From assembly GCF_027460265.1 (NCBI RefSeq), contig NZ_JAPZBC010000001.1, positions 5,808,001-5,872,000 of the forward strand: a stretch of DNA of 64,000 bases, in the 5' to 3' direction. Made by a program: the position numbers and the translations under genes. Of the stretch, positions 12,524 through 29,633 are shown piece after piece. This DNA comes from Streptomyces sp. WMMC940 (lineage in GTDB: Bacteria; Actinomycetota; Actinomycetes; Streptomycetales; Streptomycetaceae). The notes beneath the pieces are model-generated. The model was given only the letters and a program-made list of their open reading frames with translations, searched no databases and had not been told where the DNA came from. Position 1 is the stretch's first letter, and the number at the start of each line of letters is the position of its first letter.

Positions 12524-13188
12524 TGGGGGACGTGACTGCTGTACCCGTACCCCACTCCAGCGGAGGGACCGAGCGGACGGCCGGGGCCGCCCCGGCCGCT
12601 TCGAGCGGCCGGCGCAGCCTCGCCGCGGCCCTCTTCCTCGGCGCCCTCGGCGCCGCCGTGGTGCTGCTCGCCTCCGGGCAGACCTGGGCCGAGGGCACGG
12701 CCGCCGTCGGAGCCGGCAGCGTGCCGCTCGAGGCCGACGGCCGTGACGTCACCGGGCTCCCCGCGGCGCTCGCCGTCGTCGGCCTCGCCGCCCTGGTCGC
12801 GGTCTTCGCGGTCCGCCGGGCGGGCCGTGCGATCGTCTCAGCCCTGCTCGCGCTGAGCGGGGCCGGGGCCGCGGCCGCCGCCTTCCTCGGTGCCTCCGAC
12901 AGCGCTGCGCTCGAGGAGAAGGCCCGGCAGACCACCGGCGACACGGCCGCGGCCGTCGACGGCCTCACCCACACGCCCTGGCCGTACGTCACCGCCGTCG
13001 CCGGGCTGCTGATCCTGGCCGCCGGGCTGCTCGCCCTGCGGTACGGCTCCTCGTGGCCCGCCATGTCGGGGCGCTACGAGCGCGAGGGCGGCGTCCCGCG
13101 CGGGGCCCGCCCGGCCGCCGACCCGGACCGGCCCGAAGAGCTGTGGAAGGCCCTCGACCGCGGTGAGGACCCCACCGGCGACCGGTGA
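12523..13188 (+). CDS. Trp-operon-associated transmembrane protein (TIGR02234/Trp_oprn_chp family)
   Basis: A 221-aa membrane protein overlapping the trpE stop by one base. Four hydrophobic segments are visible: SLAAALFLGALGAAVVLLAS, LPAALAVVGLAALVAVFAV, IVSALLALSGAGAAAAAFL and VTAVAGLLILAAGLLALRY. A loop (SGQTWAEG, TGLPAALA) and the C-terminal tail DPDRPEELWKALDRGEDPT are typical of the family found beside actinobacterial trp genes. The tail aspartates and WKALD motif look cytoplasmic. An alternative GTG at 12532 (VTAVPVPH) is equally likely as the start. Biochemical role unknown; context suggests a link to tryptophan metabolism. Confidence 0.85.
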   Translation: MGDVTAVPVPHSSGGTERTAGAAPAASSGRRSLAAALFLGALGAAVVLLASGQTWAEGTAAVGAGSVPLEADGRDVTGLPAALAVVGLAALVAVFAVRRAGRAIVSALLALSGAGAAAAAFLGASDSAALEEKARQTTGDTAAAVDGLTHTPWPYVTAVAGLLILAAGLLALRYGSSWPAMSGRYEREGGVPRGARPAADPDRPEELWKALDRGEDPTGDR

Positions 13189-13304
13189 GACGTTCCCTCC
13201 GCGATCAGTGACGACCCCCACGTCCCGGCAGCCCCACCGGTACGGGACAATGGGGCACGGAGCATCCGACCCACCCCCAGCGCAACACCAACGAGGAGCA
13301 CTTC

Positions 13305-13565
13305 ATGGCGGGCAGCAGCCACGGACACACCCCGGCCGCCTGGACCGGTGTCACCATCTCCTTCATCGGCTTCAGCATCGCGGGAGTCTTCATGGTGGCC
13401 GCAAACCCGCTCGGGTTCTGGGCCGGCATGGGCGTCGTCGTCCTCGGCGGTGTCGTCGGCGTCGCGATGAAGGCCGCCGGCCTCGGGCAGAAGGAGGCGG
13501 CCGTGCCCGTCCCGGCCCGTACCCCGGCCGCGCAGCCGGTGGCGGCCGAGGCGACCGCCTCCTGA
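13305..13565 (+). CDS. HGxxPAAW-family small membrane protein
   Basis: An 86-aa protein beginning MAGSSHGHTPAAW, the signature that names this actinobacterial family. Two membrane segments follow (VTISFIGFSIAGVFMVAA and FWAGMGVVVLGGVVGVAM), then a short polar Ala/Pro tail. Its usual place between trpE and trpC is conserved in Streptomyces. The His in the HG motif precedes the first helix and could face outside. No function is known. It stands 116 bases after the previous gene and 77 bases before the next. Confidence 0.85.
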   Translation: MAGSSHGHTPAAWTGVTISFIGFSIAGVFMVAANPLGFWAGMGVVVLGGVVGVAMKAAGLGQKEAAVPVPARTPAAQPVAAEATAS

Positions 13566-13642
13566 CCGCGGAGATCCCCCTCGAAGGCGCGGCCCGGCGA
13601 GCCCGGGCTGCGCCTCCGCGCACGACCGGGGACAATCACGGG

Positions 13643-14185
13643 GTGGAAGCCACGCCTGCCGCCACCCCCGCACCGGGACCGTCCGCCGAAGCGGGACCGT
13701 CCCCCGCCGCCGCGCCGGGACACGAACCCGCGCCGGCACCCGTGTCCCGGCACGACCAGGGTCCGCCGCCGGCACCCCCCGCGCCGCCGCCCCTGCGTCG
13801 CCGCCTCGCGGCGCCGCTGGCCACCATGGCCGTCGTCGCCGGGGCCTTCGCCTACGTGGGCGCCGTCGACCCGAACGAGCCGGGCCACTACCCGGTCTGC
13901 CCGCTGCTGCGGTTCACCGGGATCTACTGCCCGGGCTGCGGCGGGCTGCGCAGTGCCCATGCCTTCGTCCACGGCGACCTGGGCACGGCCTTCGGCGCCA
14001 ACGCCCTCGCCGTCGCCGGATACCTGGTATTCGCCGTGTTCTGGGCCGTGTGGCTCGTCCGCGCGGCCAGTGCGAAACCGGTACGAATCACTCTGGAACC
14101 CGTGTGGTGGTGGGGTCTCGGCGCGCTCCTGGCCGTCTTCACGGTTGTCCGGAACCTGCCGTTCGGCTCGGGGCTCACCCCCTGA
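13643..14185 (+). CDS. DUF2752 membrane protein with CPGCG motif
   Basis: A 180-aa protein with a GTG start (VEATPAATPAPG). The first 55 residues are Pro/Ala/Gly-rich and disordered; then come membrane segments near LATMAVVAGAFAYVGAV, LAVAGYLVFAVFWAVWLV and WWWGLGALLAVFTVV. Between the first two is the family hallmark CPLLRFTGIYCPGCGGLRS, in which a CxxC-type cysteine pair follows the first helix. Family members are uncharacterised; the cysteines suggest a metal or redox role. The position ahead of trpC is typical of streptomycetes. Confidence 0.82.
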   Translation: MEATPAATPAPGPSAEAGPSPAAAPGHEPAPAPVSRHDQGPPPAPPAPPPLRRRLAAPLATMAVVAGAFAYVGAVDPNEPGHYPVCPLLRFTGIYCPGCGGLRSAHAFVHGDLGTAFGANALAVAGYLVFAVFWAVWLVRAASAKPVRITLEPVWWWGLGALLAVFTVVRNLPFGSGLTP

Positions 14186-14223
14186 TCCAGGAAGAAATCC
14201 CAGGTAGTGGGACGGGGCGTCAA

Positions 14224-14252
14224 CCGGATGCGGAGCCATCGCCCGCATCCGG
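14224..14252 (+). terminator. Hairpin between the DUF2752 gene and trpC
   Basis: A perfect 10-bp stem (CCGGATGCGG and its complement) with a 9-base loop, 39 bases after the DUF2752 gene stop and 60 bases before the trpC start. It may terminate the upstream transcript. I see no Trp-rich leader peptide, so a classical trp attenuator is not supported. Confidence 0.5.
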
Positions 14253-14311
14253 ATACCATCGGGATTGCCGACAGTGATCCATCATCAACTTCCCGGAAGG
14301 GGGCCGCTCGC

Positions 14312-15121
14312 GTGAGTGTGCTCGACGAGATCATCGAAGGCGTGCGCGCCGACCTCGCAGAGCGGCAGGCGCGGGTCAGCCTCGACGAGCTCAAGGAGCG
14401 TGCCGCCAAGGCGCCCCAGGCCAAGGACGGCGTCGCCGCGCTGCGCGGGGACGCCGTGAAGGTCATCTGCGAGGTGAAGCGCTCCAGCCCCTCCAAGGGC
14501 GCGCTCGCCGCGATCGCCGACCCCGCCGGCCTGGCCGCCGACTACGAGGCGGGCGGCGCGGCCGTCATCTCCGTCCTCACCGAGCAGCGCCGCTTCGGCG
14601 GCTCGCTCGAGGACCTGGAAGCCGTGCGCGCCCGGGTGGACGTCCCCGTCCTCCGCAAGGACTTCATCGTCACGTCCTACCAGCTGTGGGAGGCCCGTGC
14701 GTACGGCGCCGACCTGGCCCTGCTGATCGTCGCCGCCCTCGACCAGGAGGCCCTCGTCTCCCTGATCGAGCGCGCCGAGTCGATCGGGCTCACACCGCTC
14801 GTCGAGGTCCACGACGAGGACGAGGTCGAGCGGGCCGTGGACGCCGGAGCCAAGATCATCGGTGTCAACGCGCGCGACCTCAGGACCCTCAAGGTCGACC
14901 GTTCCACGTTCGAGCGGGTCGTCCCCGAGGTGCCCGCGGGGATCGTCAAGGTCGCCGAGTCAGGCATCCGCGGCCCCCACGACCTGATCGCGTACGCCAA
15001 TGCCGGCGCCGACGCGGTGCTGGTCGGGGAGTCGCTGGTCACCGGTCGGGACCCGAAGGCCGCCGTGGCCGACCTGGTCGCCGCGGGTGCCCACCCGGCC
15101 CTGCGGCAGGGGAGGGACTGA
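14312..15121 (+). CDS. trpC: Indole-3-glycerol phosphate synthase
   Basis: A 269-aa TIM-barrel enzyme closing CdRP to indole-3-glycerol phosphate. Signatures are [12 protein letters not shown] (catalytic Lys), [31 protein letters not shown] (catalytic Lys), [25 protein letters not shown] and [11 protein letters not shown]. The GTG at 14312 is preceded by GGAAGGGGG. It is monofunctional: no TrpF domain is attached, consistent with PriA supplying PRA isomerase. It starts the trpC-M-B-A group. Confidence 0.96.
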
Positions 15122-15129
15122 CCCGCCCC

Positions 15130-15348
15130 GTGACCGCCGTCGTCCGCCGCGCAAACACCGCCACCGGGCCGGGCCTTCCCCGGCCGGGCCGGGCGGCCGC
15201 GGGCGCCTGCGTACCGCACGCCCCGCTGGCGCGCGGCTGCCGTCCGCGCGGCTGCCGCGCGCCGGCCCGGCGGGTGCACGGACGACGGGTCAGGTACGTC
15301 ATCGGGGACGAGCCCGGCCAGGTCAACGGCATGCGATGGCGCCGCTGA
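15130..15348 (+). CDS. trpM: TrpM, small conserved streptomycete protein between trpC and trpB
   Basis: A 72-aa ORF from the GTG at 15130 to the TGA at 15348, nine bases after trpC and 69 bases before trpB. It is extremely Arg/Gly/Ala-rich, with an N-terminal VTAVVRRANTATG, four cysteines and a C-terminus RYVIGDEPGQVNGMRWRR, which looks the most constrained part. Position and size match TrpM of Streptomyces coelicolor, reported to modulate tryptophan production and growth; that assignment comes from gene order and memory, not a search. The body has biased composition and no known fold. Confidence 0.7.
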   Translation: MTAVVRRANTATGPGLPRPGRAAAGACVPHAPLARGCRPRGCRAPARRVHGRRVRYVIGDEPGQVNGMRWRR

Positions 15349-18743: not shown

Positions 18744-19682
18744 ATGGACCTTGCCTACATTCCCAGCCCGTCCACGGGTGTCGTCCACCTCGGACCGCTT
18801 CCGCTGCGCGGCTATGCCTTCTGCATCATCATCGGTGTCTTCGTGGCCGTCTGGTACGGCAACAAGCGCTGGATCGCCCGCGGCGGCAAAGCCGGCACGG
18901 TGGCCGACATCGCCGTGTGGGCCGTCCCCTTCGGCCTCGTCGGCGGCCGTCTGTACCACGTGATCACCGACTACCAGCTGTACTTCGGCGAAGGTGAGAA
19001 CTGGGTCGACGCGTTCAAGATCTGGGAGGGCGGCCTCGGCATCTGGGGCGCCATCGCGTTCGGCGCGGTCGGCGCGTGGATCGGCTGCCGCCGCCGGGGC
19101 ATCCCGCTGCCCGCGTACGCCGACGCCATCGCACCGGGCATCGCGTTCGCCCAGGCGATCGGCCGCTGGGGCAACTGGTTCAACCAGGAGCTGTACGGGA
19201 AGCCGACCGATCTCCCGTGGGCGCTCGAGATCAGCGAGGGCGTGAACCGGGAGGCCGGCCTCTACCACCCCACGTTCCTCTACGAGTCGCTGTGGTGCGT
19301 CGGCGTGGCACTGCTGGTCATCTGGGCCGACCGCCGCTTCAGGCTCGGCCACGGGCGGGCCTTCGCGCTGTACGTCGCCGCGTACTGCGCCGGCCGGGCG
19401 TGGATCGAGTACATGCGCGTCGACGAGGCGCACCACATCCTCGGCCTCCGGCTGAACGTCTGGACCGCGCTCCTGGTCTTCGTCCTGGCCGTGGTGTACA
19501 TCGTGCTCTCCGCCCGGCTCCGCCCGGGCCGCGAGGAGGTCGTCGAGCCCGAGGCGGTGCGGCAGGGCAGGGCGGCGGACGCGGACCCCGCCCCCGGCGA
19601 GTCGTCGCCCTCCAGCGCCCCTTCCCTGGACAAGGGCGCCGAGGGCGACCCGGCGGACTCCGGGTCCGCGAACAGAGGCTGA
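18744..19682 (+). CDS. lgt: Prolipoprotein diacylglyceryl transferase
   Basis: A 312-aa polytopic membrane enzyme that transfers diacylglyceryl from phosphatidylglycerol to the lipobox cysteine of prolipoproteins. The family signature GRWGNWFNQELYG lies near residue 150, and the loop IWEGGLGIWG corresponds to the conserved H/EGGL motif. About seven hydrophobic segments are visible from YAFCIIIGVFVAVWYG to TALLVFVLAVVYIVLSA, with PSPSTGVVHLGPLPLRGYA at the N-terminus. A 50-residue polar tail (DADPAPGESSPSSAPSLDKG) is longer than in enterobacterial Lgt, as usual in streptomycetes. The ATG at 18744 follows a possible leaderless promoter. Confidence 0.96.
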   Translation: MDLAYIPSPSTGVVHLGPLPLRGYAFCIIIGVFVAVWYGNKRWIARGGKAGTVADIAVWAVPFGLVGGRLYHVITDYQLYFGEGENWVDAFKIWEGGLGIWGAIAFGAVGAWIGCRRRGIPLPAYADAIAPGIAFAQAIGRWGNWFNQELYGKPTDLPWALEISEGVNREAGLYHPTFLYESLWCVGVALLVIWADRRFRLGHGRAFALYVAAYCAGRAWIEYMRVDEAHHILGLRLNVWTALLVFVLAVVYIVLSARLRPGREEVVEPEAVRQGRAADADPAPGESSPSSAPSLDKGAEGDPADSGSANRG

Positions 19683-19716: not shown

Positions 19717-19747
19717 GGGCCGCCCGGCCGTCACGGCCGGGCGGCCC
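19717..19747 (+). terminator. Hairpin after lgt
   Basis: A 13-bp perfect GC stem (GGGCCGCCCGGCC and its complement) with the 5-base loop GTCAC, 35 bases after the lgt stop. It lies between convergent transcripts and could serve both. Confidence 0.7.
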
Positions 19748-19964
19748 TGATGCGTCTGCGGGGCCGTCGCCCGGCCGCCTGGACGAGCGTGCGCCGCCCG
19801 GGCCCTGCGGGCCGGGCCGCCCGCGTACGGGACGCGGGACGCATCCGCCGCCCTGCGTGGTCGTCGGCGGGACCTGCGCCCGTCCACGTGCCTGGTCCGT
19901 TTCTCCGCGCTGCCCGAGTGCGGGTCGGTGGGTTCGCGCCGTCAGCGGCCGGGCAACGGGTGCG

Positions 19965-20020
19965 GACTGCCCGACTGCCCGACTGCCGGACTGCCGGACT
20001 GCCCGACTGCCGGACTGCCG
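19965..20020. repeat. Seven tandem copies of an 8-bp unit
   Basis: Seven uninterrupted units of GACTGCCS (S = C or G; order CC, CC, CG, CG, CC, CG, CG at the last two bases) span 56 bp in the otherwise non-coding 366-bp gap between lgt and the CoA-lyase gene. Such a short tandem array is a candidate variable-number locus. No conserved coding frame uses it. Confidence 0.9.
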
Positions 20021-20048: not shown

Positions 20049-20846
20049 TCATGCGCCGTCGCGGCCGGCGAGCGAGAGGGTGCGGTGGGCGGCGGCGACG
20101 ACCGCCGCGTCCACGAAGCGGCCGTCGGGGAGGGCCAGGGCGCCCGCGTCCGTTGTCGCCGCCTTGACGATCTCCTCCGCCGCCTCGACCTCCTCGGGGC
20201 CGGGCAGATAGGCGCGCTCGATCACCGGGAGCTGCCGGGGGTGGATCGCGGCACGGCCGAGGAAGCCCAGGGAACGGCCGTGGGCGCAGGAGGCCGCCAG
20301 CCCGTCCAGGTCGCGGATGTCGGGGAACACCGACTGCGTCGGCGGCGGCAGCCCCGCCGCGCGGGAGGCGACGACGACGCGGCTGCGCGGCCAGTCCAGT
20401 CCGGTGTCGTTCCGCACGCCCAGGTCCGCCCGGAGATCCGCCTCGCCGAGCGCGATACCGCGCACCGCGGGGTCCGCGGTGGCGATGGCGTAGGCGTGCT
20501 CCACGCCGCCGGCCGACTCCAGCAGCGCGTAGAGCGCTTTCCCCGGGGCCAGCTTCGCCGGGACCCGGATGTCGGTGGCGTGCGTCACCTTGGGGATGCG
20601 CAGAGCCGCCAGTCCCGGCAGGGGGGCCAGCGGCGCGATGTCGCGTTCCGCGTGGATGCGGACGTGGACCGGCACGGGCTGGGGGGAGGAGAGCAGCTCG
20701 ACGGTGGCCGCGAGCGCGTAGGCCTTGCGGTGCGGCGCGACCGCGTCCTCGAGGTCGACGATCACGATGTCGGCGCCTGTGGAGAGCGCCTTCTGCACCA
20801 CCTCGGGGCGGTCCCCGGGCACGTACAGCCAGGTCAGCGGGGTCAT
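20049..20846 (-). CDS. HpcH/HpaI-type CoA-ester lyase (CitE-like)
   Basis: A 265-aa TIM-barrel lyase of the CitE/malyl-CoA lyase group, which cleaves beta-hydroxyacyl-CoA esters (citramalyl-CoA, malyl-CoA and similar) with Mg2+. Signatures: YVPGDRPEVVQKAL, IVDLEDAVAPHRKAYA, VHVRIHA, metal-ligand Glu in ALLESAGGVEHAYAI, Asp in ALGEADLRADLG, and GFLGRAAIHPRQLPVI. Only the small CitE-like core is present. The ATG overlaps the upstream CoA-transferase stop (ATGA), so the pair is co-translated: the transferase would activate an acid and the lyase would cleave a derived CoA ester. The hydratase normally needed between them is not here. Confidence 0.88.
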   Translation of the reverse strand: MTPLTWLYVPGDRPEVVQKALSTGADIVIVDLEDAVAPHRKAYALAATVELLSSPQPVPVHVRIHAERDIAPLAPLPGLAALRIPKVTHATDIRVPAKLAPGKALYALLESAGGVEHAYAIATADPAVRGIALGEADLRADLGVRNDTGLDWPRSRVVVASRAAGLPPPTQSVFPDIRDLDGLAASCAHGRSLGFLGRAAIHPRQLPVIERAYLPGPEEVEAAEEIVKAATTDAGALALPDGRFVDAAVVAAAHRTLSLAGRDGA

Positions 20847-22093
20847 AGCGCGCCTTCGTTGCGCAGGGCTGCGATCCGGCCGGGGGTGAGCCCGAGCTCG
20901 CCCAGGACGGTGTCGGTGTCCGCGCCGTGCGGCCGGCCGGCCCAGCGGATGCCGCCGGGGGTCTCGGAGAGGCGGAAGAGGATGTTCTGCATACGGATCG
21001 GGCCGAGTTCCGGATCGGGCACCTCGGTGACGCTGTCCAGCGCCCGGTACTGGGGGTCGTCCATGACCTCCCGTACGTCGTAGACGGGGGCGACCGCGGC
21101 CTCGGCCTTGTCGAAGGCGGCGATGACCTCGTCCCGGGTGTGCCGGGCGATCCAGGCGCCCACGGCCTCGTCGAGCACATCGGCGTGCTCGGCCCGTCCG
21201 CTGCCCGAGGAGAACCACGGCTCGGAGACCAGCTCCGGGCGGCCGACGAGCCGCATCACGCGTTCGGCCACGGACTGCGCGGAGGTGGAGACCGCGAGCC
21301 AGGAGCCGTCGGCAGCCCGGTAGGTGTTGCGCGGGGCGTTGTTGCGTGACCGGTTGCCGGTGCGTGGCTGGACGTAGCCGAGCTGGTCGTACCAGATGGG
21401 CTGCGGCCCGAGCACGGTGAGGATGGGTTCGATGATGGCCATGTCGACGACCTGGCCGCGGGCGGTGGAGGCTCGCGCGGTGAGCGCGGTCATGACGGCG
21501 TAGGAGGTGGCGAGGGCCGCGATGGAGTCGGCGAGACCGAACGGCGGCAGCGTGGGCGGCCCGTCCGGCTCGCCGGTGATCGCGGCGAACCCGCTCATGG
21601 CCTCGGCGAGGGTGCCGAAACCGGGCCGGTGGCAGTACGGGCCGAACTGGCCGAAGCCCGTGACCCTGGCCAGCACCAGCCGCGGATTGGCGGCGCTCAG
21701 CTCCTCCCAGCCCAGCCGCCACCGTTCCAGCGTGCCGGGGCGGAAGTTCTCGATGACGACGTCCGCCGTGGAGGCGAGCCTCAGGAAGGTCTCGCGCCCG
21801 CCGGGCGTGGACAGGTCGAGCGTGATGGTCCGCTTGTTGCGGCCGAGTAGCTTCCACCAGAGCCCGATGCCGTCCTTGCCGGGACCGTGGCCCCGTGACG
21901 GGTCGGGTCTGCGGGGGTGCTCGACCTTGATCACGTCGGCGCCGAAGTCGCCGAGCATCGTCGCGGCGAGCGGCCCGGCGAAGAGGGTGGCGAGATCGAG
22001 GACGCGCAGCCCGGCGAGCGGCCCGCCCGTGGCGGGCGCCCCGGCCTGGGGGGACTGGCGGGCGGCGACACCGTCGGCGTCGGGGTCGTGCAT
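20843..22093 (-). CDS. Class III (CaiB/BaiF) CoA-transferase
   Basis: A 416-aa family III formyl-CoA-transferase-fold protein that moves CoA between carboxylic acids. Landmarks: LAGLRVLDLATLFAGPLAA, LGDFGADVIKVEHPRRPDPSRG, LGRNKRTITLDLSTPGGRE, ADVVIENFRPGTLERWRLG, TGFGQFGPYCHRPGFGTLAEA and STARGQVVDMAIIEPILTVL. At the position where the family's catalytic Asp usually follows the GQxVD strand, I read Glu (AIIEPIL); this occurs in some subfamilies. It is coupled to the CoA-lyase gene downstream and separated from the kinase gene by 116 bases, so these two genes may form their own unit. Confidence 0.88.
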   Translation of the reverse strand: MHDPDADGVAARQSPQAGAPATGGPLAGLRVLDLATLFAGPLAATMLGDFGADVIKVEHPRRPDPSRGHGPGKDGIGLWWKLLGRNKRTITLDLSTPGGRETFLRLASTADVVIENFRPGTLERWRLGWEELSAANPRLVLARVTGFGQFGPYCHRPGFGTLAEAMSGFAAITGEPDGPPTLPPFGLADSIAALATSYAVMTALTARASTARGQVVDMAIIEPILTVLGPQPIWYDQLGYVQPRTGNRSRNNAPRNTYRAADGSWLAVSTSAQSVAERVMRLVGRPELVSEPWFSSGSGRAEHADVLDEAVGAWIARHTRDEVIAAFDKAEAAVAPVYDVREVMDDPQYRALDSVTEVPDPELGPIRMQNILFRLSETPGGIRWAGRPHGADTDTVLGELGLTPGRIAALRNEGAL

Positions 22094-22209
22094 GGGGGCT
22101 CCCTGAGAGTCTCTCCTGCGGGTGTGCGTGAGGCGGCGACGGGCGTGGGGTACGGCCCGTCGGGACGCGTGCGCGTGTGGTGCGTGCGGGCCGGGCGGAG
22201 CGCGCCGGC

Positions 22210-23118
22210 TCAGCCGCCCGTGGCGCCCTCCAGCCGCCCGGCGTCGATCTCGGAGCGGTACGGCATGGACGTCGAGGCGCCGGGGCGCCGGACGGACAGC
22301 GCGGCCGCGGTGGACGCCCAGGCCATCGCCTCGGCCATCGGCCGGCCCTCGACCAGGGCCACGGTGAGGGCGCCGACGAAGGTGTCCCCGGCGGCCGTCG
22401 TGTCGACGGCACGCACCCGGGGCGCCGGGACGGTGACGATCCCGGCGTCCCGGGCGGCATGGAGGCTGCCTGCCGAGCCGAGGGTGATCACCACCTCCGG
22501 CACCTCCCGGAGCAGCGCCTCCGCCGCCGCTCGGGGATCGGCGGTTCCGGTGAGCAGGGCGGCCTCGTGCTCGTTGGGCACCAGCAGGTCGGTGACGCCG
22601 AGCAGCTCGGGCGGCAGGGGCCGGGCCGGGGCGGGGGTGAGGACGGTCCTCACCCCGTGCCGGTGGGCGGCCTCGGCGCCCGCGATCACTCCGGCCAGAG
22701 GCAGTTCGAGCTGGAGCAGCAGCGCGTCCGCGGCGCCGATGAGGGTCTCGTCGCCGGGTGTGAGGTGGTCCACGGTCCCGTTGGCGCCGGGGATGACGAC
22801 GATCGCGTTGCCGCCCTCGTCGTCCACCACGATGTGCGCGGTTCCGGACGGCCCTTCCGCGGTGCGCAGCAGATCGGTGTCGACCGCGGAGTGTTCGAGC
22901 GTCTCCCGCAGCACGGCGCCGAAGTCGTCCGTGCCGACGGCGCCGATCATCGCCACGTCGCCGCCGGCCCGGGCGGCGGCGACGGCCTGGTTGGCGCCCT
23001 TGCCGCCGGGAACGGTGCGGAACTCCCGGCCCGTCACGGTCTCCCCGCGCAGCGGAGCCTTCGGGACGTAGACGACGAGGTCCATGTTGGTACTGCCGAG
23101 CACGACGATGCCGGTCAT
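22210..23118 (-). CDS. Ribokinase-like PfkB-family sugar kinase
   Basis: A 302-aa kinase whose N-terminus is ribokinase-like: VLGSTNMDLVVYVPKAPLRG, then FRTVPGGKGANQAVAAARAGG. ATP and anion-hole motifs follow: LVPNEHEA, VVITLGSAGS and the catalytic Asp in DTTAAGDTFVGALTVAL. The probable reaction is ribose (or a similar pentose or nucleoside) to the 5-phosphate. Its ATG overlaps the stop of an upstream ADP-ribosylglycohydrolase-family gene, linking it to sugar released by that enzyme. No transporter is encoded nearby, so the sugar probably arises inside the cell. Confidence 0.88.
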   Translation of the reverse strand: MTGIVVLGSTNMDLVVYVPKAPLRGETVTGREFRTVPGGKGANQAVAAARAGGDVAMIGAVGTDDFGAVLRETLEHSAVDTDLLRTAEGPSGTAHIVVDDEGGNAIVVIPGANGTVDHLTPGDETLIGAADALLLQLELPLAGVIAGAEAAHRHGVRTVLTPAPARPLPPELLGVTDLLVPNEHEAALLTGTADPRAAAEALLREVPEVVITLGSAGSLHAARDAGIVTVPAPRVRAVDTTAAGDTFVGALTVALVEGRPMAEAMAWASTAAALSVRRPGASTSMPYRSEIDAGRLEGATGG

Positions 23119-24539
23119 GGGTGCCGGTCCTCCCGGAGAGTGATGCGGTCGCACGTGAGGCGGGCGAGCGAGTCGAAGCCGATGCCGTCGAACCCTCCGA
23201 CGGTGGTGGCGAGGCGGTTCTTGAGCGGGGTGGTCCAGCGCTCGGGCAGCCGCTCGGGGCGCCCGGCGAGCAGCCCGGCCAGCGAACCCGCCGTGGCGCC
23301 GTTGGAGTCCGTGTCCCAGCCCCCCGACACCGCACGGCAGACGGAACCGGTGAAGTCGCCGTCCGCATGGGTGAGCGCGGCGGCGAGCAGAGCGGCGTTG
23401 GGCACGACGTGCACCCAGTGGTAGGCGCCGTGTGCGGCGTGCAGCCGGTCCACGACGGTGTCGAAGTCGCCGTGCGCGGCGGCGGTGGCGATCGCGTGCC
23501 GCACGGCCCGCGCGAGCCGCGAACCGGGCGGGACGACACGGAGCCCCTCGCGCAGGCACGCGTGCACGTCGGTGCCCCCGCCGGCCGCGACGGCGAGCGC
23601 GGCCGCGACGAACATGGCTCCGTACACGCCGTTCGCGGTGTGGGTGAGCACCGCGTCCCGGTGGGCCTGTTCGGCCGCGGCGGCCGGGTCGCCCGGGTGG
23701 GTCCAGCCGTGGACGTCGGCGCGGATCGCGGCGCCGATCCACTCCCGGAAGGGGTTGTGCCGGGTCGCGGTCTCCGGCGGTTCCACGCCGTGGAGGAGAT
23801 TGCGGTACGCGACCCGCTCGGCGGTGAAGGTACGGCCTGCGGGGAGTTCGTCCAGCCAGAGCCGGGCCACGTCGGAGGTGTCGAAGTCCTGTCCGTACCG
23901 CTGGAGGAGGAGCAGGTTCAGCAGCGGGTAGTCGAGGTCGTCGTCCTCGGGCATGCCGTCGATGTTCTCGGCGAGCGAGGTGGGGGCGGAGCGGCGGTTC
24001 CAGGGGTGGGCGGCCAGCAGCCGGGGAGGCACGCCCTCGGCGGTGAACCAGGTCGACAGCGGCCAGTTGCCGGTCGCTCGGGCGAGTGCGCGGATGGCGT
24101 GCAGGGGGAGCTTCTCCACGGGCTTGCCGAGCAGGCAGCCGGCCGCCCGGCCGAGCCAGGCGGCGTGCAGCCGGTGTTCCAACGGCCCGCCCGGCCCGTT
24201 CCCGGGCGCGCCGCGTGGTCGGCCGACCCCCGTCTCCTCCCGCGAACGGGAGGTGGGCCAGTCGGGGCACGCGGCCCGGATGGCCGGCAGGCTCGTCGGC
24301 TCGCGGTCGGCGAACGGAGCGGGGAGCGCGTCCAGTTCGTCCAGCAGCCGCATCGCCAGCGTCCGGAGCCGGGGGTCGGCGGGCCGGGGCGAGGCGCCCG
24401 CGGCCGGGGGGGCCGGGGCGCCGCCGGCGGTACGCCAGCGCAGCGCGGCCGCAGAGGCGTCGCGGCCGTCCTCGGCGGCCTGGCGGAGCTCGTGGCCTAC
24501 CAGGTCCTCGGGCTGGACCCAGGTGAGCCGGAGGTTCAC
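23115..24539 (-). CDS. ADP-ribosylglycohydrolase-family protein 1
   Basis: A 474-aa product with a GTG start at 24539 overlapping the stop of the gene upstream. About 120 variable, Pro/Ala-rich N-terminal residues precede the domain. The ARH/DraG fold is shown by AAWLGRAAGCLLGKPVEKLP, an acidic first metal motif MPEDDDLDYPLLNLLLL, THTANGVYGAMFVAAALAVA and the second metal motif SGGWDTDSNGATAGSLAGLL. Both motifs are intact, so hydrolysis of an N- or O-glycosidic (ADP-)ribosyl bond is likely. The EDDDLDY form marks a subfamily distinct from the other three copies in the cluster. Substrate unknown. Confidence 0.88.
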   Translation of the reverse strand: MNLRLTWVQPEDLVGHELRQAAEDGRDASAAALRWRTAGGAPAPPAAGASPRPADPRLRTLAMRLLDELDALPAPFADREPTSLPAIRAACPDWPTSRSREETGVGRPRGAPGNGPGGPLEHRLHAAWLGRAAGCLLGKPVEKLPLHAIRALARATGNWPLSTWFTAEGVPPRLLAAHPWNRRSAPTSLAENIDGMPEDDDLDYPLLNLLLLQRYGQDFDTSDVARLWLDELPAGRTFTAERVAYRNLLHGVEPPETATRHNPFREWIGAAIRADVHGWTHPGDPAAAAEQAHRDAVLTHTANGVYGAMFVAAALAVAAGGGTDVHACLREGLRVVPPGSRLARAVRHAIATAAAHGDFDTVVDRLHAAHGAYHWVHVVPNAALLAAALTHADGDFTGSVCRAVSGGWDTDSNGATAGSLAGLLAGRPERLPERWTTPLKNRLATTVGGFDGIGFDSLARLTCDRITLREDRHP

Positions 24540-25702
24540 CGGGCGTCCGTCAGTTCGGCGAAGGCGGCCTCGTGCGCCCGGCGGCGCCGGGTGTCGCGGG
24601 CGAAGATCTCATGGGCGACCTCCGTGAGCGTGCGGGCGGGGGCGTGCAGATCGAGACGGCTGGCCTCGGAGACGGTCTTGACCCATTCGGCCGGGACCGG
24701 TTCCCCGCCGTACAGCGCGCCCGCGATCGCGCCGGACATCGTGGCGATCGAGTCGCAGTCCCGGCCGTAGTTGACGCAGCCCAGCACGGTCCTGCGGTAG
24801 TCGCCGTCGCCGATGAGCAGCATGCCCAGCGCGATGGGGAGTTCCTCGACGGAGTGCAGCCGGGAGGGGCGGCGGGCGGCGAGGGACGGGGCGCGGTAGT
24901 CGGGCCCGACGGTGTCGAAGGGGGCGACCGCCTCGCGGAGCGGACGGAGCGCGGGCTCGAAGTCGCTGTACCGGCAGGCGACTTCGGCCACCGCCTCGAT
25001 CGCGGAGTGGGTGCCGTCCTTGGCGAGGGACAGGGAGGCCTCGACGACGGTCTCCGGGCCGGCGCCGGGTGTGCAGGCCGCGGCGACCGCGGCGGCGAGG
25101 ACGCCCGCGGCCTCGCGCCCGTAGGAGGACTGGTGGGCGCCCGCCACGTCCAGGGCCTCCGCGTACGCGGCGGCCGGGTCGGCGGCGTTGACCAGGCCGA
25201 CGGGGGCCATGTACATGGCCGCACCGCAGTTGACGATGTTCCCGGTCCCGGCCTCGCGGGGGTCGACATGGCCGTAGTGCAGCCGCGCCGCGAGCCACTT
25301 CTCGGCGAGGAACACCCGCTGCAGGGGCAGGGCCTCGGCCTCCAGCTCGGGGATCCAGCGGGGGGTGGAGACGAGGTCCGGTACGAGGTGGTCGGCGACG
25401 GCGTACGCGTCCAGGTGGTCCCGGACGGTGGCGTAGACGCGGACCAGGGCGTGCGTCATCAGGGTGTCGTCGGTGACGTGCCCGTCGCCCTTGTGGTACG
25501 GCGCGATGGGGCGGGCGGTGCGCCAGTCGTCGCCGTGCCAGGGGCCGACGACGCCCTGGACGCGGCCGCCGTGGCGTTCCACGATCTGCTCCGGCGTGTA
25601 GCCCTCGACCGGCCCGCCGAGCGCGTCGCCCACCGCCGCGCCGACGAGGGAGCCCGTGATGCGGTCGTCGAGCGCGGCGACCGGGTGCGCTGAGAGTGTC
25701 AT
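24536..25702 (-). CDS. ADP-ribosylglycohydrolase-family protein 2
   Basis: A 388-aa enzyme with both di-metal motifs intact: GHVTDDTLMTHALVRVY near 75 and NYGRDCDSIATMSGAIAGAL near 315. Domain landmarks are ITGSLVGAAVGDALGGPVEG at the N-terminus and NIVNCGAAMYMAPVGLVNAA in the middle. This is the most canonical DraG/ARH copy of the four by its first motif (TDDT). The ATG at 25702 lies 73 bases after the stop of copy 3; its own stop overlaps the GTG of copy 1. Regulation probably goes with the whole leftward cluster. Confidence 0.9.
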   Translation of the reverse strand: MTLSAHPVAALDDRITGSLVGAAVGDALGGPVEGYTPEQIVERHGGRVQGVVGPWHGDDWRTARPIAPYHKGDGHVTDDTLMTHALVRVYATVRDHLDAYAVADHLVPDLVSTPRWIPELEAEALPLQRVFLAEKWLAARLHYGHVDPREAGTGNIVNCGAAMYMAPVGLVNAADPAAAYAEALDVAGAHQSSYGREAAGVLAAAVAAACTPGAGPETVVEASLSLAKDGTHSAIEAVAEVACRYSDFEPALRPLREAVAPFDTVGPDYRAPSLAARRPSRLHSVEELPIALGMLLIGDGDYRRTVLGCVNYGRDCDSIATMSGAIAGALYGGEPVPAEWVKTVSEASRLDLHAPARTLTEVAHEIFARDTRRRRAHEAAFAELTDAR

Positions 25703-25775
25703 GCCGGAATTGTCCACCCGGGGTGGGTGCGGGTGGGGCAGGCCGCGTCGGGGATTCGCGCACGGGACAGGCGAG

Positions 25776-27680
25776 TTACGGGCCCGTGGTCCGGCCGGCG
25801 CCGTGCCGGGGGGCGGCCGAGGACGGGAGGCGCGTCGCGCCCGGCGGCTCGGTGGACGGCGGGGTGCGCGGCGCGGCCGGGGGACCGTTCGGCGGGCGGA
25901 CCCCGCGGGCGAGCCGTCCCGCGAGTTCGACGAGATCCGTACCGGCGAGACGGGGGAGGGCGCAGCCGGCCAGGGTGCGGCAGGCGTCCCGCCACGCCGC
26001 GGGCACGGCCGTGCCACCGCAGAGGGCCCCGGACAGCGCACCGGCGAGGGCGGGCGCCGAGTCGGCCACGCGCGACAGGCACGCGGCGGCCGGCAGGGCC
26101 CCGCCCAGCCCGCCGCGCGCCGCCGTCACCATGGCGAGGGCGACGGGCACGGTCTCGGCGGCGGCGATGCCGTAGCTGTAGACGTGGTCGACGATCTGGT
26201 GTTCCAGCAGGGGCACGAGGGAGAAGGCGTCCTCGGCGTCGCGGGCGAGCGCGAGGGCGTGCCGGGCGTTGCGGCCGATCTCTGTGGCCGCGGGGAGTTC
26301 GGCGAGGGCGGCGCCGACGGCCGCGTCCACCCGTGCGCCACCGAGCGCCGCGGCGACGGCGGCCGCCATGGCGCGGGCGCCGTGCACCCCGTCGCCGTCC
26401 TGGGTGTAGCGGGCGTCGAACTCGGCGAGGTCGGCGGCGTTCCGCGGATCACCGGGGTGGACGACGGCGAGCACGGCGGCCCGGACGCAGGCGGCGTCGT
26501 CGAAGTAGTGCGGGTTGTCGTGGCCCGTGGCGGGCGGGCGCAGCCCGGTCGCGAGATTGCCGAGTCCCGCGCGCACGGAGATCCGGGCACGGAGGGGCGG
26601 TACGGCCGCCTCGACCTCGGGGGCGCGGGCCTCGGCCGCGGCGATCTTCCCGGCCAGGGAGTTCCAGGCGACGTCGACGGCCGCGCGCACACGGCGGCGG
26701 GGGTCGAGTCCGTCGAACCGCTCACCGGCGGAGGCGAGGACGGTCTCAGCGGTGAAGGCGGCCCACTCGGCGTCGTCGGACGGGCCGAGGCGCAGTGGTT
26801 CCGGTGGCTGGTTCAGAGCGATGGGGACCGGGAGCGTGGTCGTGGCGTTCTGCTCGGCGAACGTGTCCAGCTCACGGGTGAGCCGCCGGGTCCACTCCGG
26901 CATCCGCGCGGCCCGGTGCCGAGCGGCGGGCCACCCGGCGGCGTCACCGGCGGCGAGGCCCAGCAGCAGCCCCTCGATCCGTGCGCGGTACGCGTCGTCG
27001 GCCGGGGGAGCGGTGCGCCCCCGGGAGCCGGTGGCCTCGCCGGGGCGGACCGCTGCCCGGTGCGGCCAGGAGGAGTAGCCCCACCCGGACACGGGACCGC
27101 CGGCACCGGTCCCGGCACCGCGGGCGTCCTGCGGCCGAGCCCGCCCGGCGGCCGCGCCGCGCGCCCGGACGTCCGGCGCCGAGTGCCGCCGCAGCGGGTC
27201 CGTCCCGTGCCCCGGCCGCCCTGCCGGGCGCGCGTGCTCCGGTTTCCCGGGGCGCTGCCGTGCGGTGCGGTCCGCACCCAGGGCACCGGCCGAGGGGCCG
27301 GGGACCGGGCGGGGGCCGTGCGGCGCCGCGTCGCCGTCCGCCGGACCGCTGCCCGCCGGTGCCTCGGGCGCCTCGCCGTGCCCATCCGCCTCCCCCTTGC
27401 CGTGTCGTCTCTTGTCGTGACCGTCGTCGTCGTGCCGGTCCTGCGCCCGACGGCCGCCTTCGCCGTGCCGCCCCTCGCCCTCCTCGCCCCCGCCGTGCCG
27501 GCCGTGCCCCAGCACGTCCCTCCCGGTGGCCGGGACCGGCTCGGGGCACGGATCCGGCGCTTCCTCGCCGTGGTCCTCGCCGGATGTGCCCGACCTGTCC
27601 GACGTCAGGTCCGGAGGGGCGTCGGGGCTGCCCGGGGCGGAGTGGTCCGGGGGCGCCGGGTCGAGGGGGCGGGGGGTCAT
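25776..27680 (-). CDS. ADP-ribosylglycohydrolase-family protein 3, long form with degenerate second metal motif
   Basis: A 634-aa product with an ATG that overlaps the upstream stop (ATGA). The first ~230 residues are low-complexity and highly charged (His, Gly, Arg, Asp, Pro), probably disordered. The ARH-like domain begins near YRARIEGLLLGLAAGDAAGW. The first metal region reads LGPSDDAEWAAFTAE; at the second, where the relatives have GRDxDS/T, this copy has CLSRVADSAPALAGALSGAL, so the first Asp of the DxD pair is Val. Metal binding is probably weakened and the protein may be a regulatory or binding paralogue. A C-terminal Pro-rich tail of ~45 residues follows. Confidence 0.8.
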   Translation of the reverse strand: MTPRPLDPAPPDHSAPGSPDAPPDLTSDRSGTSGEDHGEEAPDPCPEPVPATGRDVLGHGRHGGGEEGEGRHGEGGRRAQDRHDDDGHDKRRHGKGEADGHGEAPEAPAGSGPADGDAAPHGPRPVPGPSAGALGADRTARQRPGKPEHARPAGRPGHGTDPLRRHSAPDVRARGAAAGRARPQDARGAGTGAGGPVSGWGYSSWPHRAAVRPGEATGSRGRTAPPADDAYRARIEGLLLGLAAGDAAGWPAARHRAARMPEWTRRLTRELDTFAEQNATTTLPVPIALNQPPEPLRLGPSDDAEWAAFTAETVLASAGERFDGLDPRRRVRAAVDVAWNSLAGKIAAAEARAPEVEAAVPPLRARISVRAGLGNLATGLRPPATGHDNPHYFDDAACVRAAVLAVVHPGDPRNAADLAEFDARYTQDGDGVHGARAMAAAVAAALGGARVDAAVGAALAELPAATEIGRNARHALALARDAEDAFSLVPLLEHQIVDHVYSYGIAAAETVPVALAMVTAARGGLGGALPAAACLSRVADSAPALAGALSGALCGGTAVPAAWRDACRTLAGCALPRLAGTDLVELAGRLARGVRPPNGPPAAPRTPPSTEPPGATRLPSSAAPRHGAGRTTGP

Positions 27681-28672
27681 GACAGGGCCTCGGAGTCGTC
27701 GTACGGAGTGAGCAGATCCGCGATGTCCAGGACGTGGTGGCCACGCATCGAGGGGAGGCAGCTGCCGCGGACGGGGCCGATCGCGGCGGCCCAGTCCGAC
27801 GGGATGGCGGAGGCGCCCGACATCGCGCCGGCCAGCGCCCCCGCGACCGCCGCGGTGGTGTCGGCGTCGCGGCCCATGTTCACCGCGGTCAGCACCGACG
27901 TGCGGAAGTCGCCGCGGGCCGCCGCGAAGGCCCCGAAGGCGAGGCCGACGGCCTCGGGAGCCAGGTCGGTCCACGGGTAGCCGCCGACGACGACGGCGGA
28001 GCGGACCGTCCGTTCCCGGCCGAGCGGGTCCGTCCCGGCGCGTTCCGCCGCGACGACCGCCCGGCGCATGGAGCGCGAGGTCCAGGAGTCGAGGGGGACG
28101 ACGGACAGGGCCGCCCCGATCACTCCCGCCGGGCCGGCCCCGGCCATCGCCGCGGCCACCCCCGCCGCCACCGCCTGCCCGCCGTAGATGCCCTCGCCGT
28201 CGTGGCTCACGGAGCCGTCGACGGCCACCAGCCGCGCGGCCTCGTCGGGCCGGCCCGCGGCGAACACGCCGAACGGTGCCGCCCGCATCGCGAGCCCGTC
28301 GCTCCAGGCGTGCCGGTGCTGCGCGGTGATCGGAGCCGCCAGCCCCCGACGCAGGTTCTCCAGTGTGCCGCGCTCGCTGAAGCCGGCGCCGCGGAACGGC
28401 CCCTCGTCCAGGTCCGCGATCCAGTGGTGCCACGCCTTCTCGACGTGGGCCACCGTCAGCGCCGATCCGTGCCGGGCGAGCAGCAGCCCGGAGAAGATCG
28501 CGTACTCCGTGTCGTCCGTGCCGGCGGGGCTGTCGGTCACGAAGCCCTCGATGCGGCCCCAGCGGCGGCGGATCTCGGACGGCCGCATGTTCTCCGCCGG
28601 TGCGCCGAGGGCGTCGCCCACCGCCAGCCCCAGAAGTGCGCCGCGGGCCCGATCGCATGCAATCCAGTCCAC
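27677..28672 (-). CDS. ADP-ribosylglycohydrolase-family protein 4
   Basis: A 331-aa protein. I place the start at the GTG at 28672 (VDWIACDRARG) because a strong AAGGAG ribosome site lies seven bases upstream; an upstream in-frame GTG would destroy that spacing. Family motifs are complete: ARGALLGLAVGDALGAPAEN, TDSPAGTDDTEYAIFSGLLL, SVSHDGEGIYGGQAVAAG and MGRDADTTAAVAGALAGAM. It is the first gene of the leftward cluster and is translationally coupled to copy 3. Divergent from the metal-transporter gene, with about 230 bases between the starts. Confidence 0.9.
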   Translation of the reverse strand: MDWIACDRARGALLGLAVGDALGAPAENMRPSEIRRRWGRIEGFVTDSPAGTDDTEYAIFSGLLLARHGSALTVAHVEKAWHHWIADLDEGPFRGAGFSERGTLENLRRGLAAPITAQHRHAWSDGLAMRAAPFGVFAAGRPDEAARLVAVDGSVSHDGEGIYGGQAVAAGVAAAMAGAGPAGVIGAALSVVPLDSWTSRSMRRAVVAAERAGTDPLGRERTVRSAVVVGGYPWTDLAPEAVGLAFGAFAAARGDFRTSVLTAVNMGRDADTTAAVAGALAGAMSGASAIPSDWAAAIGPVRGSCLPSMRGHHVLDIADLLTPYDDSEALS

Positions 28673-28787
28673 CGCGCCACTCCTTCGCACCCCCTCGGGC
28701 CTGTTCCCCGATCTGTCCCCCGCGGGGCGCCGGGTGGGGGCGCGGGGGACATCGGTTCACGCGTCCGGCCCAAGGAGGGAGTGCACC

Positions 28788-28824
28788 GCGCGCCAGGTAA
28801 GTAAAGCCTGCCTTGCTGGCGCGC
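28788..28824. promoter_or_regulatory. Long inverted repeat upstream of the VIT-family transporter
   Basis: GCGCGCCAG at 28788-28796 pairs perfectly with CTGGCGCGC at 28816-28824, with an inner AAG/CTT pair and the AT-richer centre GTAAGTAAAGCCTGCCTTG. It lies 81 bases before the transporter GTG. The AGGTAAG half resembles part of a DtxR/IdeR/DmdR metal-repressor box, but the other half matches poorly. It may be an operator or a leader-RNA structure. Confidence 0.5.
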
Positions 28825-28904
28825 CCCTTACATCGCGCGTACTTTCGAGAGCGGGAAAAGGGGCGGGACGCGGACGCGGACCGTTCGGGTTCGAGGGGAG
28901 AGCT

Positions 28905-29633
28905 GTGTCCATCATCGAGACCGAGGCGACGCTTCACGAGGCGCACCGCGACAATCACACGCACCGCGACGTCAGCGGCGGCTGGCTGCGTCCCGCGGTG
29001 TTCGGCGCGATGGACGGGCTCGTGTCCAACCTCGCCCTGATGACCGGGGTCGCCGGGGGCTCCGCCTCCCCGCAGACCATCGTGATCACGGGCTTCGCCG
29101 GTCTCGCGGCCGGCGCCTTCTCGATGGCCGCCGGTGAGTACACCTCGGTCGCCTCGCAGCGCGAGCTCGTCCAGGCGGAACTGGACGTCGAGCGCCGTGA
29201 GCTGCGCAAGCACCCGGTCGACGAGATGGAGGAGCTGGCCGCGCTGTACGTGGCCCGCGGTGTCGAGCCCCGGCTGGCCCGCGAGGTGGCCATCCAGCTG
29301 TCCAGGGACCCGGAGCAGGCGCTGGAGATCCACGCCCGCGAGGAACTGGGCATCGACCCGGACGAGCTGCCCTCGCCGGCGGTCGCCGCCGTCTCGTCGT
29401 TCGCATCGTTCGCCCTGGGCGCGCTGCTCCCGGTCCTGCCGTACCTGCTGGGGGCCGCCTCGCTGTGGCCGGCGGTGCTGCTGGCGCTCCTGGGGCTGTT
29501 CGCCTGCGGCGCGCTGGTGTCCAGGGTGACCGCCCGCGGCTGGTGGTTCAGCGGGCTGCGGCAGCTGGCCCTGGGCGGTGCCGCGGCGGCGGTGACGTAC
29601 GGGATCGGGAACCTGGTCGGCGCCGCGGTGTAG
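28905..29633 (+). CDS. VIT1/CCC1-family iron/manganese transporter
   Basis: A 242-aa membrane protein with a GTG start eight bases after GAGGGGAG. The first helix carries the family signature WLRPAVFGAMDGLVSNLALM, followed by IVITGFAGLAAGAFSMAAGEYTSV, both with the Asp/Glu/Met residues that line the metal path. A cytosolic helical domain (ASQRELVQAELDVERRELRK to LSRDPEQALEIHAREELG) is the metal-binding linker of the family. Three further membrane segments end the protein. It probably exports Fe2+ or Mn2+. Monocistronic, with a hairpin after the stop and an inverted repeat in its leader. Confidence 0.9.
   Translation: MSIIETEATLHEAHRDNHTHRDVSGGWLRPAVFGAMDGLVSNLALMTGVAGGSASPQTIVITGFAGLAAGAFSMAAGEYTSVASQRELVQAELDVERRELRKHPVDEMEELAALYVARGVEPRLAREVAIQLSRDPEQALEIHAREELGIDPDELPSPAVAAVSSFASFALGALLPVLPYLLGAASLWPAVLLALLGLFACGALVSRVTARGWWFSGLRQLALGGAAAAVTYGIGNLVGAAV

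What the first reader, a model, noticed from the sequence alone, without database searches (positions are those of the whole stretch)
20049..28672. Operon with four divergent ADP-ribosylglycohydrolase paralogues, a ribokinase-like kinase and a CoA-transferase/CoA-lyase pair
Seen: four ARH/DraG-fold genes in one leftward cluster, mostly joined by 4-bp stop/start overlaps, with a ribokinase-like gene coupled to copy 1. Known: ARH enzymes cleave ADP-ribosyl or related N/O-glycosidic bonds; ribokinases salvage ribose. Inferred: a dedicated route that releases a ribosyl moiety from an intracellular substrate and phosphorylates it, with the CoA genes processing an acid made in the same process or forming a separate unit (116-bp gap). 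Four paralogues with different metal motifs (EDDD, TDDT, SDDA, TDDT) suggest different substrates or a complex. I know of no described pathway with this set.
Basis: partly seen in the sequence, partly recalled or inferred. Interest (0 to 1): 0.75.

Follow-up and report, generated by a model that had tools for sequence, protein, structure and literature searches.

The report
Four-hydrolase sugar-scavenging operon of actinobacteria
A seven-gene unit conserved across soil actinobacteria, whose four hydrolase genes are usually counted as erasers of ADP-ribose tags, looks instead like the remnant of an operon that imports and digests an unknown ribose-containing compound, and one of the four hydrolases appears to be an inactive partner protein.

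Summary
In detail: four ADP-ribosylglycohydrolase (ARH) genes, a ribokinase, a class III CoA-transferase (caiB) and a CitE-type lyase lie at 20049-28672(-) in a Streptomyces genome. In other actinobacterial groups the same order often follows a LacI regulator and a sugar-type ABC importer; Streptomyces lacks these at the locus. In 160 Streptomycetaceae genomes caiB (at 75% identity or more) and ARH3 come and go together: 44 both, 115 neither, 1 contig end. The kinase is the loose member: 11 of 45 block-bearing genomes lack it, and all 11 hold another ribokinase-like gene. ARH1, ARH3 and ARH4 keep their metal motifs. ARH2, sister of ARH1, has lost a metal-binding aspartate in all 120 sequences scored, so it is probably a non-catalytic partner. 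Best reading: a catabolic operon for a ribose-containing glycoside, not ADP-ribose tag removal; the substrate is unknown. Four S. coelicolor ARH homologues, probably the same genes, are listed in print as uncharacterised; my searches found no paper on the operon. New variant of a known kind (ARH + sugar kinase + transporter, as in E. coli yegTUV).

The parts
27677..28672 (-). ARH1: ADP-ribosylglycohydrolase-fold enzyme, motifs GTDDTE and GRDADT intact
   Evidence: PF03747 E 1.2e-58; motifs invariant in 88 of 88 and 89 of 89 orthologues
25776..27680 (-). ARH2: sister of ARH1 with PSDDAE and RVADS (first Asp of the second metal motif lost); probable pseudoenzyme partner; PF03747 domain at residues 237-561, after a variable low-complexity N-terminal stretch
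   Evidence: PF03747 E 1.9e-34; Asp absent in 120 of 120 scored, one gapped row set aside, 114 of 114 after removing near-identical loci; sister clade of ARH1
24536..25702 (-). ARH3: ARH-fold enzyme, VTDDTL and GRDCDS
   Evidence: PF03747 E 2.4e-50; model mean pLDDT 82.8, best PDB match MJ1187 1t5j E 5.4e-9
23115..24539 (-). ARH4: ARH-fold enzyme with PEDDDL and GWDTDS and a conserved N-terminal extension of about 110 residues
   Evidence: PF03747 E 1.8e-49; EDDD 103 of 103; most orthologues in other families align from residue 2 or 3
22210..23118 (-). ribokinase (PfkB family)
   Evidence: TIGR02152 309 bits, cut-off 299.65; key residues conserved in 119-120 of 120; the only such match in this genome at E<=1e-40
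20843..22093 (-). caiB: class III CoA-transferase
   Evidence: PF02515 E 6.4e-123; putative catalytic Asp 133 of 133, a count that includes relatives outside the block
20049..20846 (-). citE: CitE/RipC-type C-C lyase of a CoA thioester
   Evidence: PF03328 E 1.2e-24; RipC_Ccl 134 bits, below its 375 cut-off; putative metal-binding Glu and Asp 132 of 132, including relatives outside the block
19717..19747 (.). perfect 15-nt inverted repeat between the convergent ends of lgt and the operon; possible two-way terminator

Best explanation
The seven genes are the enzymatic part of an old catabolic operon for a ribose-containing glycoside taken up from outside. A LacI-controlled CUT1 importer brings the compound in; it still stands beside the genes in Nonomuraea and in the unnamed groups coded f21, f19 and g20 (by my guess Micromonosporaceae, Streptosporangiaceae and Kitasatospora) but not at the Streptomyces locus. 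The ARH-fold enzymes hydrolyse its ribofuranosidic bond or bonds with their two-metal site: ARH1, with ARH2 as non-catalytic partner, forms one unit, and ARH3 with ARH4 the other. Free ribose is phosphorylated by a ribokinase, from the operon or elsewhere. The acid half of the compound is loaded with CoA by CaiB and split by the CitE-type lyase into an acyl-CoA and an oxo acid. Shown by sequence: gene set, order, co-inheritance, conserved active-site residues, loss of a metal ligand in ARH2, importer in relatives. Inferred: that the ARHs act on a riboside rather than on ADP-ribosylated targets, the ARH1/ARH2 complex, the order of steps and the nature of the acid. In the window's own genome no close orthologue of the importer's binding protein was found, so uptake there must use another route or the unit now serves an internal source.
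For: Importer and LacI ahead of ARH1 in relatives: 16 of the 28 loci hold LacI, both permeases, binding protein, ARH1-4, kinase, caiB and citE (the 28 were chosen for ARH or importer hits, several are cut by contig ends); domain calls in 51, 52. The binding protein's nearest solved structures are mostly sugar- or oligosaccharide-binding proteins, the first an unnamed Lmo0181 protein. ARH3-like genes with LacI and a carbohydrate ABC importer also sit on alphaproteobacterial plasmids, one with a ribokinase; an unannotated Ensifer plasmid has a CaiB as well. CaiB and ARH3 in 160 Streptomycetaceae genomes: 44 both, 1 caiB only (contig end), 115 neither. The kinase keeps the ribokinase residues; all 11 block genomes that lack it hold another ribokinase-like gene, against 16 of 34 with it (p 0.0013, uncorrected for kinship). 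GRD or G[W/L/C]D in place of GGD sets these ARHs apart from DraG, MJ1187, the Thermus protein and YegU. Kinase to caiB: median 32 bp between aligned ends in 94 loci.
Against: No substrate is known and none was predicted. The 75% identity line for caiB was drawn after seeing the list: five more genomes (G061, G063, G064, G088, G127) hold a caiB at 66-71%, as near as the operon caiB of other families (68-71%), without ARH3. On a tree of 86 rows only three independent events bear on the ARH-caiB link; all three agree, too few for significance. The CoA genes are absent beside the ARHs in Nonomuraea (L175) and L149. The window genome lacks the importer orthologue. Thirty of 33 sampled block-negative genomes also have a ribokinase-like match, so the kinase argument says little about this pathway. 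S. coelicolor SCO2028 and SCO2030 were tested, in the passages I read, on one ADP-ribosylated substrate only. The loop difference is tied to function by no experiment; another ARH of this genome (L001) has RGD there, and two (L002, L007) were not resolved.
Confidence: 0.55

Rival explanations
1. The ARHs are true erasers of ADP-ribosylation (protein, nucleic acid or small molecule), as assumed in the Streptomyces literature; the kinase and CoA genes only recycle by-products.
For: Family fold, two intact metal motifs in ARH1, ARH3 and ARH4; two papers list the S. coelicolor genes as putative ADP-ribosyl hydrolases (passages).
Against: LacI and a sugar-type importer head the operon in other groups; no ADP-ribosyltransferase was among the neighbours I scanned with Pfam, though not every neighbour was scanned; SCO2028 and SCO2030 showed no activity on uracil-linked ADP-ribose; GRD/GWD in place of GGD.
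Confidence: 0.2
2. Catabolic operon, but the ARHs cleave a non-ribose linkage (another pentofuranoside or a sugar-acid ester), and the ribokinase is simply the cell's ribokinase parked in the operon.
For: The kinase comes and goes independently: 11 of 45 block-bearing genomes lack it, and four VIT1-lgt loci keep the kinase alone; in 18 of 34 genomes it is the only ribokinase match, which alone would explain its retention.
Against: The kinase sits at the same place in the order in the 16 loci with the full operon, and the 11 kinase-free genomes all keep another ribokinase-like gene.
Confidence: 0.2
3. Two unrelated units, ARH1-4 plus kinase and caiB plus citE, that happen to be neighbours.
For: 116-bp gap in the window; CoA genes absent beside the ARHs in L149 and L175; near caiB relatives work in other contexts with PrpD-family genes.
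Against: Presence and absence are tied in Streptomycetaceae; order is kept where the block lies away from VIT1, gltB, lgt and trpA (L131-L136); in kinase-free genomes caiB follows ARH4 with an aligned gap of 35 bp or less in 7 of 11.
Confidence: 0.05

Closest known systems
E. coli yegTUV with GgaR (YegW)
   Same: ARH (YegU) and PfkB kinase (YegV) coupled to a transporter and a regulator.
   Different: One ARH with GGD, MFS transporter, GntR regulator, no CoA genes; YegU shares about 25% identity with ARH1 and ARH3. Its repressor's effector is reported as ADP-glucose (abstract and passages); substrate unproven.
DraG/ARH family of ADP-ribosyl hydrolases
   Same: PF03747, fold, two-metal motifs in ARH1, ARH3, ARH4.
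   Different: Loop GRD or G[W/L/C]D instead of GGD; importer in the operon of relatives; ARH2 lacks a metal ligand.
S. coelicolor SCO2028-SCO2031
   Same: Four consecutive DraG/ARH homologues named in print (passage); a 2016 paper lists three of them (passage). Their identity with ARH1-4 is inferred from tag order near the trp genes, not tested.
   Different: Nothing in the passages read describes them as an operon with kinase and CoA genes.
Ribose-scavenging (rus) loci of Bacteroides (recalled; a search found nothing)
   Same: ARH-type gene with ribokinases in a ribose or nucleoside scavenging locus, from memory.
   Different: Different transport and no CoA-transferase/lyase pair, from memory.
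CaiB + CitE-type pairs of hydroxy-acid and itaconate/citramalate breakdown
   Same: CoA transfer followed by C-C cleavage (recalled); best NCBIfam relatives RipC and succinate-glutarate CoA-transferase.
   Different: All those scores lie below the curated cut-offs; no hydratase in the seven-gene unit.
Vertebrate ADPRHL1
   Same: Pseudoenzyme of the ARH family (abstracts in a search listing).
   Different: A heart protein, not a partner of an active ARH in an operon.

Membership tests
ADP-ribosylglycohydrolase family (PF03747) | Profile match over the curated cut-off | tested here: met
   All four genes
ADP-ribosylglycohydrolase family (PF03747) | Both metal motifs in ARH1, ARH3 and ARH4 | tested here: met
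   TDDT or EDDD, and DxD[S/T], invariant in Streptomycetaceae; DxD also outside
ADP-ribosylglycohydrolase family (PF03747) | Both metal motifs in ARH2 | tested here: not met
   First Asp lost in 120 of 120 scored sequences
DraG/ARH ADP-ribosylation erasers | GGD loop seen in DraG, MJ1187, Thermus ARH and YegU | tested here: not met
   GRD in 112 of 112 ARH1 and 127 of 127 ARH3, Trp, Leu or Cys at that place in ARH4; that this loop is defining is my inference
DraG/ARH ADP-ribosylation erasers | Release of ADP-ribose from a modified target | not testable with these tools
   Needs assay; SCO2028 and SCO2030 inactive on U-ADPr in print
Ribokinase (TIGR02152) | Score over the curated cut-off | tested here: met
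   309 against 299.65 bits; it also stays under the stricter PRK11142 line (276 against 341)
Ribokinase (TIGR02152) | Ribose- and catalysis-related residues | tested here: met
   N, D, GGKG.NQ, E, D..GD conserved in 119-120 of 120; residue roles recalled from the E. coli enzyme
yegTUV-type unit | One ARH, one PfkB kinase, MFS transporter, GntR regulator | tested here: not met
   Four ARHs; CUT1 ABC and LacI in relatives
Class III CoA-transferase | PF02515 and conserved Asp | tested here: met
Citramalyl-CoA lyase RipC | NCBIfam cut-off | tested here: not met
   134 against 375 bits

The most novel reading that the evidence does not exclude
About half of the ARH genes counted as ADP-ribosylation erasers in Streptomyces are not erasers at all but riboside hydrolases of a nutrient pathway, working as hetero-oligomers in which a conserved inactive ARH (ARH2) supports an active sister (ARH1), coupled to a CoA route for the acid half of an as yet unknown, naturally abundant ribosylated acid.
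Probability: 0.33. Interest if true: 0.8.

Novelty: new variant of a known kind. Interest (0 to 1): 0.6.

Why it matters
The large number of ARH genes in Streptomyces has been read as a sign of lively ADP-ribosylation metabolism (passage). If four of them belong to a nutrient operon, that count must be revised, and purified proteins should be tested on ribosides, in pairs, not singly on ADP-ribosylated targets. It would also give the ARH family a carbohydrate-catabolic branch with a conserved pseudoenzyme, and point to an unknown ribosylated compound common enough to have kept an operon of up to twelve genes in several actinobacterial groups.

Tried and rejected
Tried without use: full-text searches for a described operon gave no paper on it; they cover open-licence PMC papers only. 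A shared domain between the 640-aa extra protein (X) and the C-terminal part of the rhizobial 690-aa ARH was looked for and not found (hhalign probability 0.3%). The structure of X came out poor (mean pLDDT 58.7); its order of strands and helices, and my reading of it as a glycosidase, is only a lead. The phylum-wide search for ARH3 found matches only in the same genus, 8 of 296 genomes, probably because that sample held few of the families in question.

Rejected: that ARH2 is a decaying pseudogene: it is kept as a separate clade across families with the same lost ligand, and in 115 alignments no stop falls before residue 357 of the 404-residue piece used as query, i.e. only at the end of the domain (three cases at 357-361); the in-frame stops counted therefore lie in the tail. 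That the importer is elsewhere in this genome: best binding-protein match only E 3.7e-13. In one search citE of L127 fell under my score threshold although present (63% identity in pieces). Three genomes were fetched twice from two collections (L036/L141, L048/L142, L061/L145), so counts hold a few doubles; recounted without near-identical loci, the Asp is absent in 114 of 114 ARH2, and Arg stands in the loop in 106 of 106 ARH1 and 121 of 121 ARH3.
Full report
What is there. The window is G000:C1:5808001-5872000 of a 7.67 Mb Streptomyces genome, unnamed; the nearest named relative among the fetched loci is S. wuyuanensis (kinase 93%). Seven minus-strand genes fill 20049-28672 between VIT1 (28905-29633, +) and lgt (18744-19682, +): ARH1, ARH2, ARH3, ARH4, a ribokinase, a class III CoA-transferase (caiB) and a CitE-type lyase. 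Four junctions are 4-bp overlaps; ARH2-ARH3 and kinase-caiB are 73 and 116 bp. A perfect 15-nt hairpin lies between the convergent ends of the operon and lgt. No gene holds a TTA codon.

Conservation in Streptomyces. Of 80 loci fetched with the kinase as bait (the best 80 of 361, so biased to close relatives and to kinase bearers), 67 span VIT1 to lgt: 63 hold all seven genes and 4 only the kinase. In 160 Streptomycetaceae genomes, caiB at 75% identity or more was found in 45, ARH3 in 44, all within those 45; the odd one, G192, ends at a contig edge. I drew the 75% line after seeing the list; five more genomes (G061, G063, G064, G088, G127) have a caiB at 66-71% without ARH3, with a citE of 39-45% near it in four of them. 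In G169 ARH3 and ARH4 are truncated against each other. The kinase (E<=1e-60) is in 34 of the 45; in the 11 others (G076, G099, G115, G119, G145, G154, G163, G166, G198, G213, G217) ARH4 is followed by caiB without it (L118-L128; L122 shows no ARH1, its contig ends there), one with a short kinase-like remnant (L125). G076 has another ribokinase-like gene just upstream of its LacI gene. On a tree of four marker proteins (86 rows, a few doubled) the kinase changes at least 6 times and caiB and ARH3 3 times each, in step in 3 of 3 independent pairs; three is too few for significance.

The full operon. ARH4 was searched in 296 genomes of the class; 52 had matches, 29 of them outside the genus. I fetched 20 of those places and 8 more regions, three of them Streptomyces importer loci. 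Nine of the 28 loci hold, in this order, LacI, two CUT1 permeases, a binding protein, ARH1-4, kinase, X, caiB and citE; seven hold the same without X. Pfam confirms LacI, BPD_transp_1 twice and SBP_bac_1 in L157 and L132. Genus g20 (Kitasatospora by my guess) has the importer next to the block, at a place without VIT1, gltB, lgt and trpA in the fetched 17-18 kb (L131-L136). Other forms: L167 has importer, ARH3, ARH4, X, caiB and citE; L166 lacks the kinase and has the CoA genes ahead of LacI; L149 lacks kinase and CoA genes beside the ARHs, and Nonomuraea (L175) lacks the CoA genes; L181 and L182 have a divergent LacI and weaker importer matches beside ARH1 and ARH2. Four annotated alphaproteobacterial plasmids show LacI, two permeases, a binding protein and an ARH3-like gene (about 40-42% identity); three of them have a second, 690-aa ARH, and one a ribokinase. 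An unannotated Ensifer plasmid has the same order with a CaiB at the end. A Mycolicibacterium plasmid has LacI, an ARH4-like gene, importer and ribokinase. The window genome has no close orthologue of the binding protein; three of the 14 genomes searched, all Streptomyces with the block, have binding protein and permeases elsewhere, beside a glycosyltransferase-like and an APH-like gene.

The four ARHs. On a quick tree of 61 rows each is its own group (ARH4 support 72, the others 97-99), and ARH1 and ARH2 are sisters (95); several outside rows are long and their places unsure. ARH1, ARH3 and ARH4 keep both metal motifs. ARH2 has lost the first Asp of the second motif in 120 of 120 scored sequences, one gapped row set aside; the second Asp stays in all but one; without near-identical loci it is 114 of 114. 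The residue before the first Asp is Arg in 112 of 112 ARH1 and 127 of 127 ARH3, and Trp, Leu or Cys in ARH4, but Gly in DraG, MJ1187, the Thermus protein, YegU and one other ARH of this genome (L004). Another of this genome, L001, reads RGD; L002 and L007 were not resolved. The ARH3 model (mean pLDDT 82.8) matches MJ1187, DraG and vertebrate ARH3 structures.

The other enzymes. The kinase scores over the ribokinase cut-off and is nearest to solved ribokinases. This genome has no second ribokinase match at E<=1e-40. Of 34 block genomes with the operon kinase, 16 have another; of 11 without, all 11 do (Fisher p 0.0013, kinship not corrected). Thirty of 33 sampled block-negative genomes also have a match, some partial. 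So the kinase behaves like an exchangeable true ribokinase; this fits ribose as a product but does not prove it. caiB and citE keep residues that I take, from memory, to be catalytic, but no named substrate in NCBIfam fits. Two relatives of the pair without ARHs (L113, L115) sit with cyclase and MmgE/PrpD genes, and L113 also with an MFS transporter, which suggests organic-acid breakdown.

Interpretation. A LacI-controlled sugar-type importer at the head of the operon in several groups points to a nutrient, not to a cellular signal. ARH chemistry on ribofuranosides plus a true ribokinase points to ribose as one product; a CoA-transferase with a C-C lyase points to an acid as the other. This is inference from gene content. 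In Streptomyces the importer is not at the locus, so the unit there may depend on another importer or on an internal source. I put 0.55 on the catabolic reading with ribose, 0.2 on catabolism of another linkage, 0.2 on erasing of ADP-ribose, 0.05 on two unrelated units.

What is known. Passages of PMC9411070 list SCO2028-SCO2031, and passages of PMC5087735 SCO2028-SCO2030, among uncharacterised DraG homologues. Passages of PMC13036486 report SCO2028 and SCO2030 purified and inactive on uracil-linked ADP-ribose. The yegTUV operon is described in PMC10819704 (abstract and passages). That SCO2028-2031 are ARH1-4 is inferred from tag order near the trp genes. Searches found no paper on this operon; subscription journals are mostly outside that library.

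Noticed in passing
window 26972-27680: ARH2 carries a low-complexity N-terminal stretch of about 230 residues, open also in S. wuyuanensis (L029) where it is longer, with a short conserved patch near its end; relatives outside Streptomyces that were aligned have a shorter one or none.
   Followed up: partly
L157:6208-8127: An extra 640-aa protein X between kinase (or ARH4) and caiB in 12 loci, L157 included, with a C-terminal FGE/EgtB-like domain and an N-terminal part that by eye resembles a TIM-barrel glycosidase; the model is too poor to settle it. In L165 kinase and X run in one frame.
   Followed up: partly
L156:15679-16458: A small methyltransferase-like gene follows citE in nine loci (L154, L156-L158, L160-L163, L183).
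   Followed up: no
L169, L171, L172 (about 13100-15230): Alphaproteobacterial 690-aa ARH proteins have about 390 unassigned C-terminal residues; one has a faint laminin-G match (L172, E 0.17).
   Followed up: partly
L176, L177, L178: In three Streptomyces the orthologous binding protein and permeases sit next to a macrolide-type glycosyltransferase-like gene and an APH-like kinase gene.
   Followed up: no
window 28673-28904: Between ARH1 and the divergent VIT1 lies an AT-richer stretch that by eye resembles an iron box; not scanned for.
   Followed up: no
window 19963-20020: An 8-bp tandem repeat (7.2 copies) just beyond the end of citE.
   Followed up: no
L117 6624-7353: In one Streptomyces (G169) ARH3 and ARH4 are both truncated and run together while the other five genes are found at full length or nearly so.
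   Followed up: no
L084, L086, L094, L101, L129, L130: Loci that keep the kinase with none of the ARH or CoA genes; for L129 and L130 it is the only ribokinase match in the genome.
   Followed up: partly
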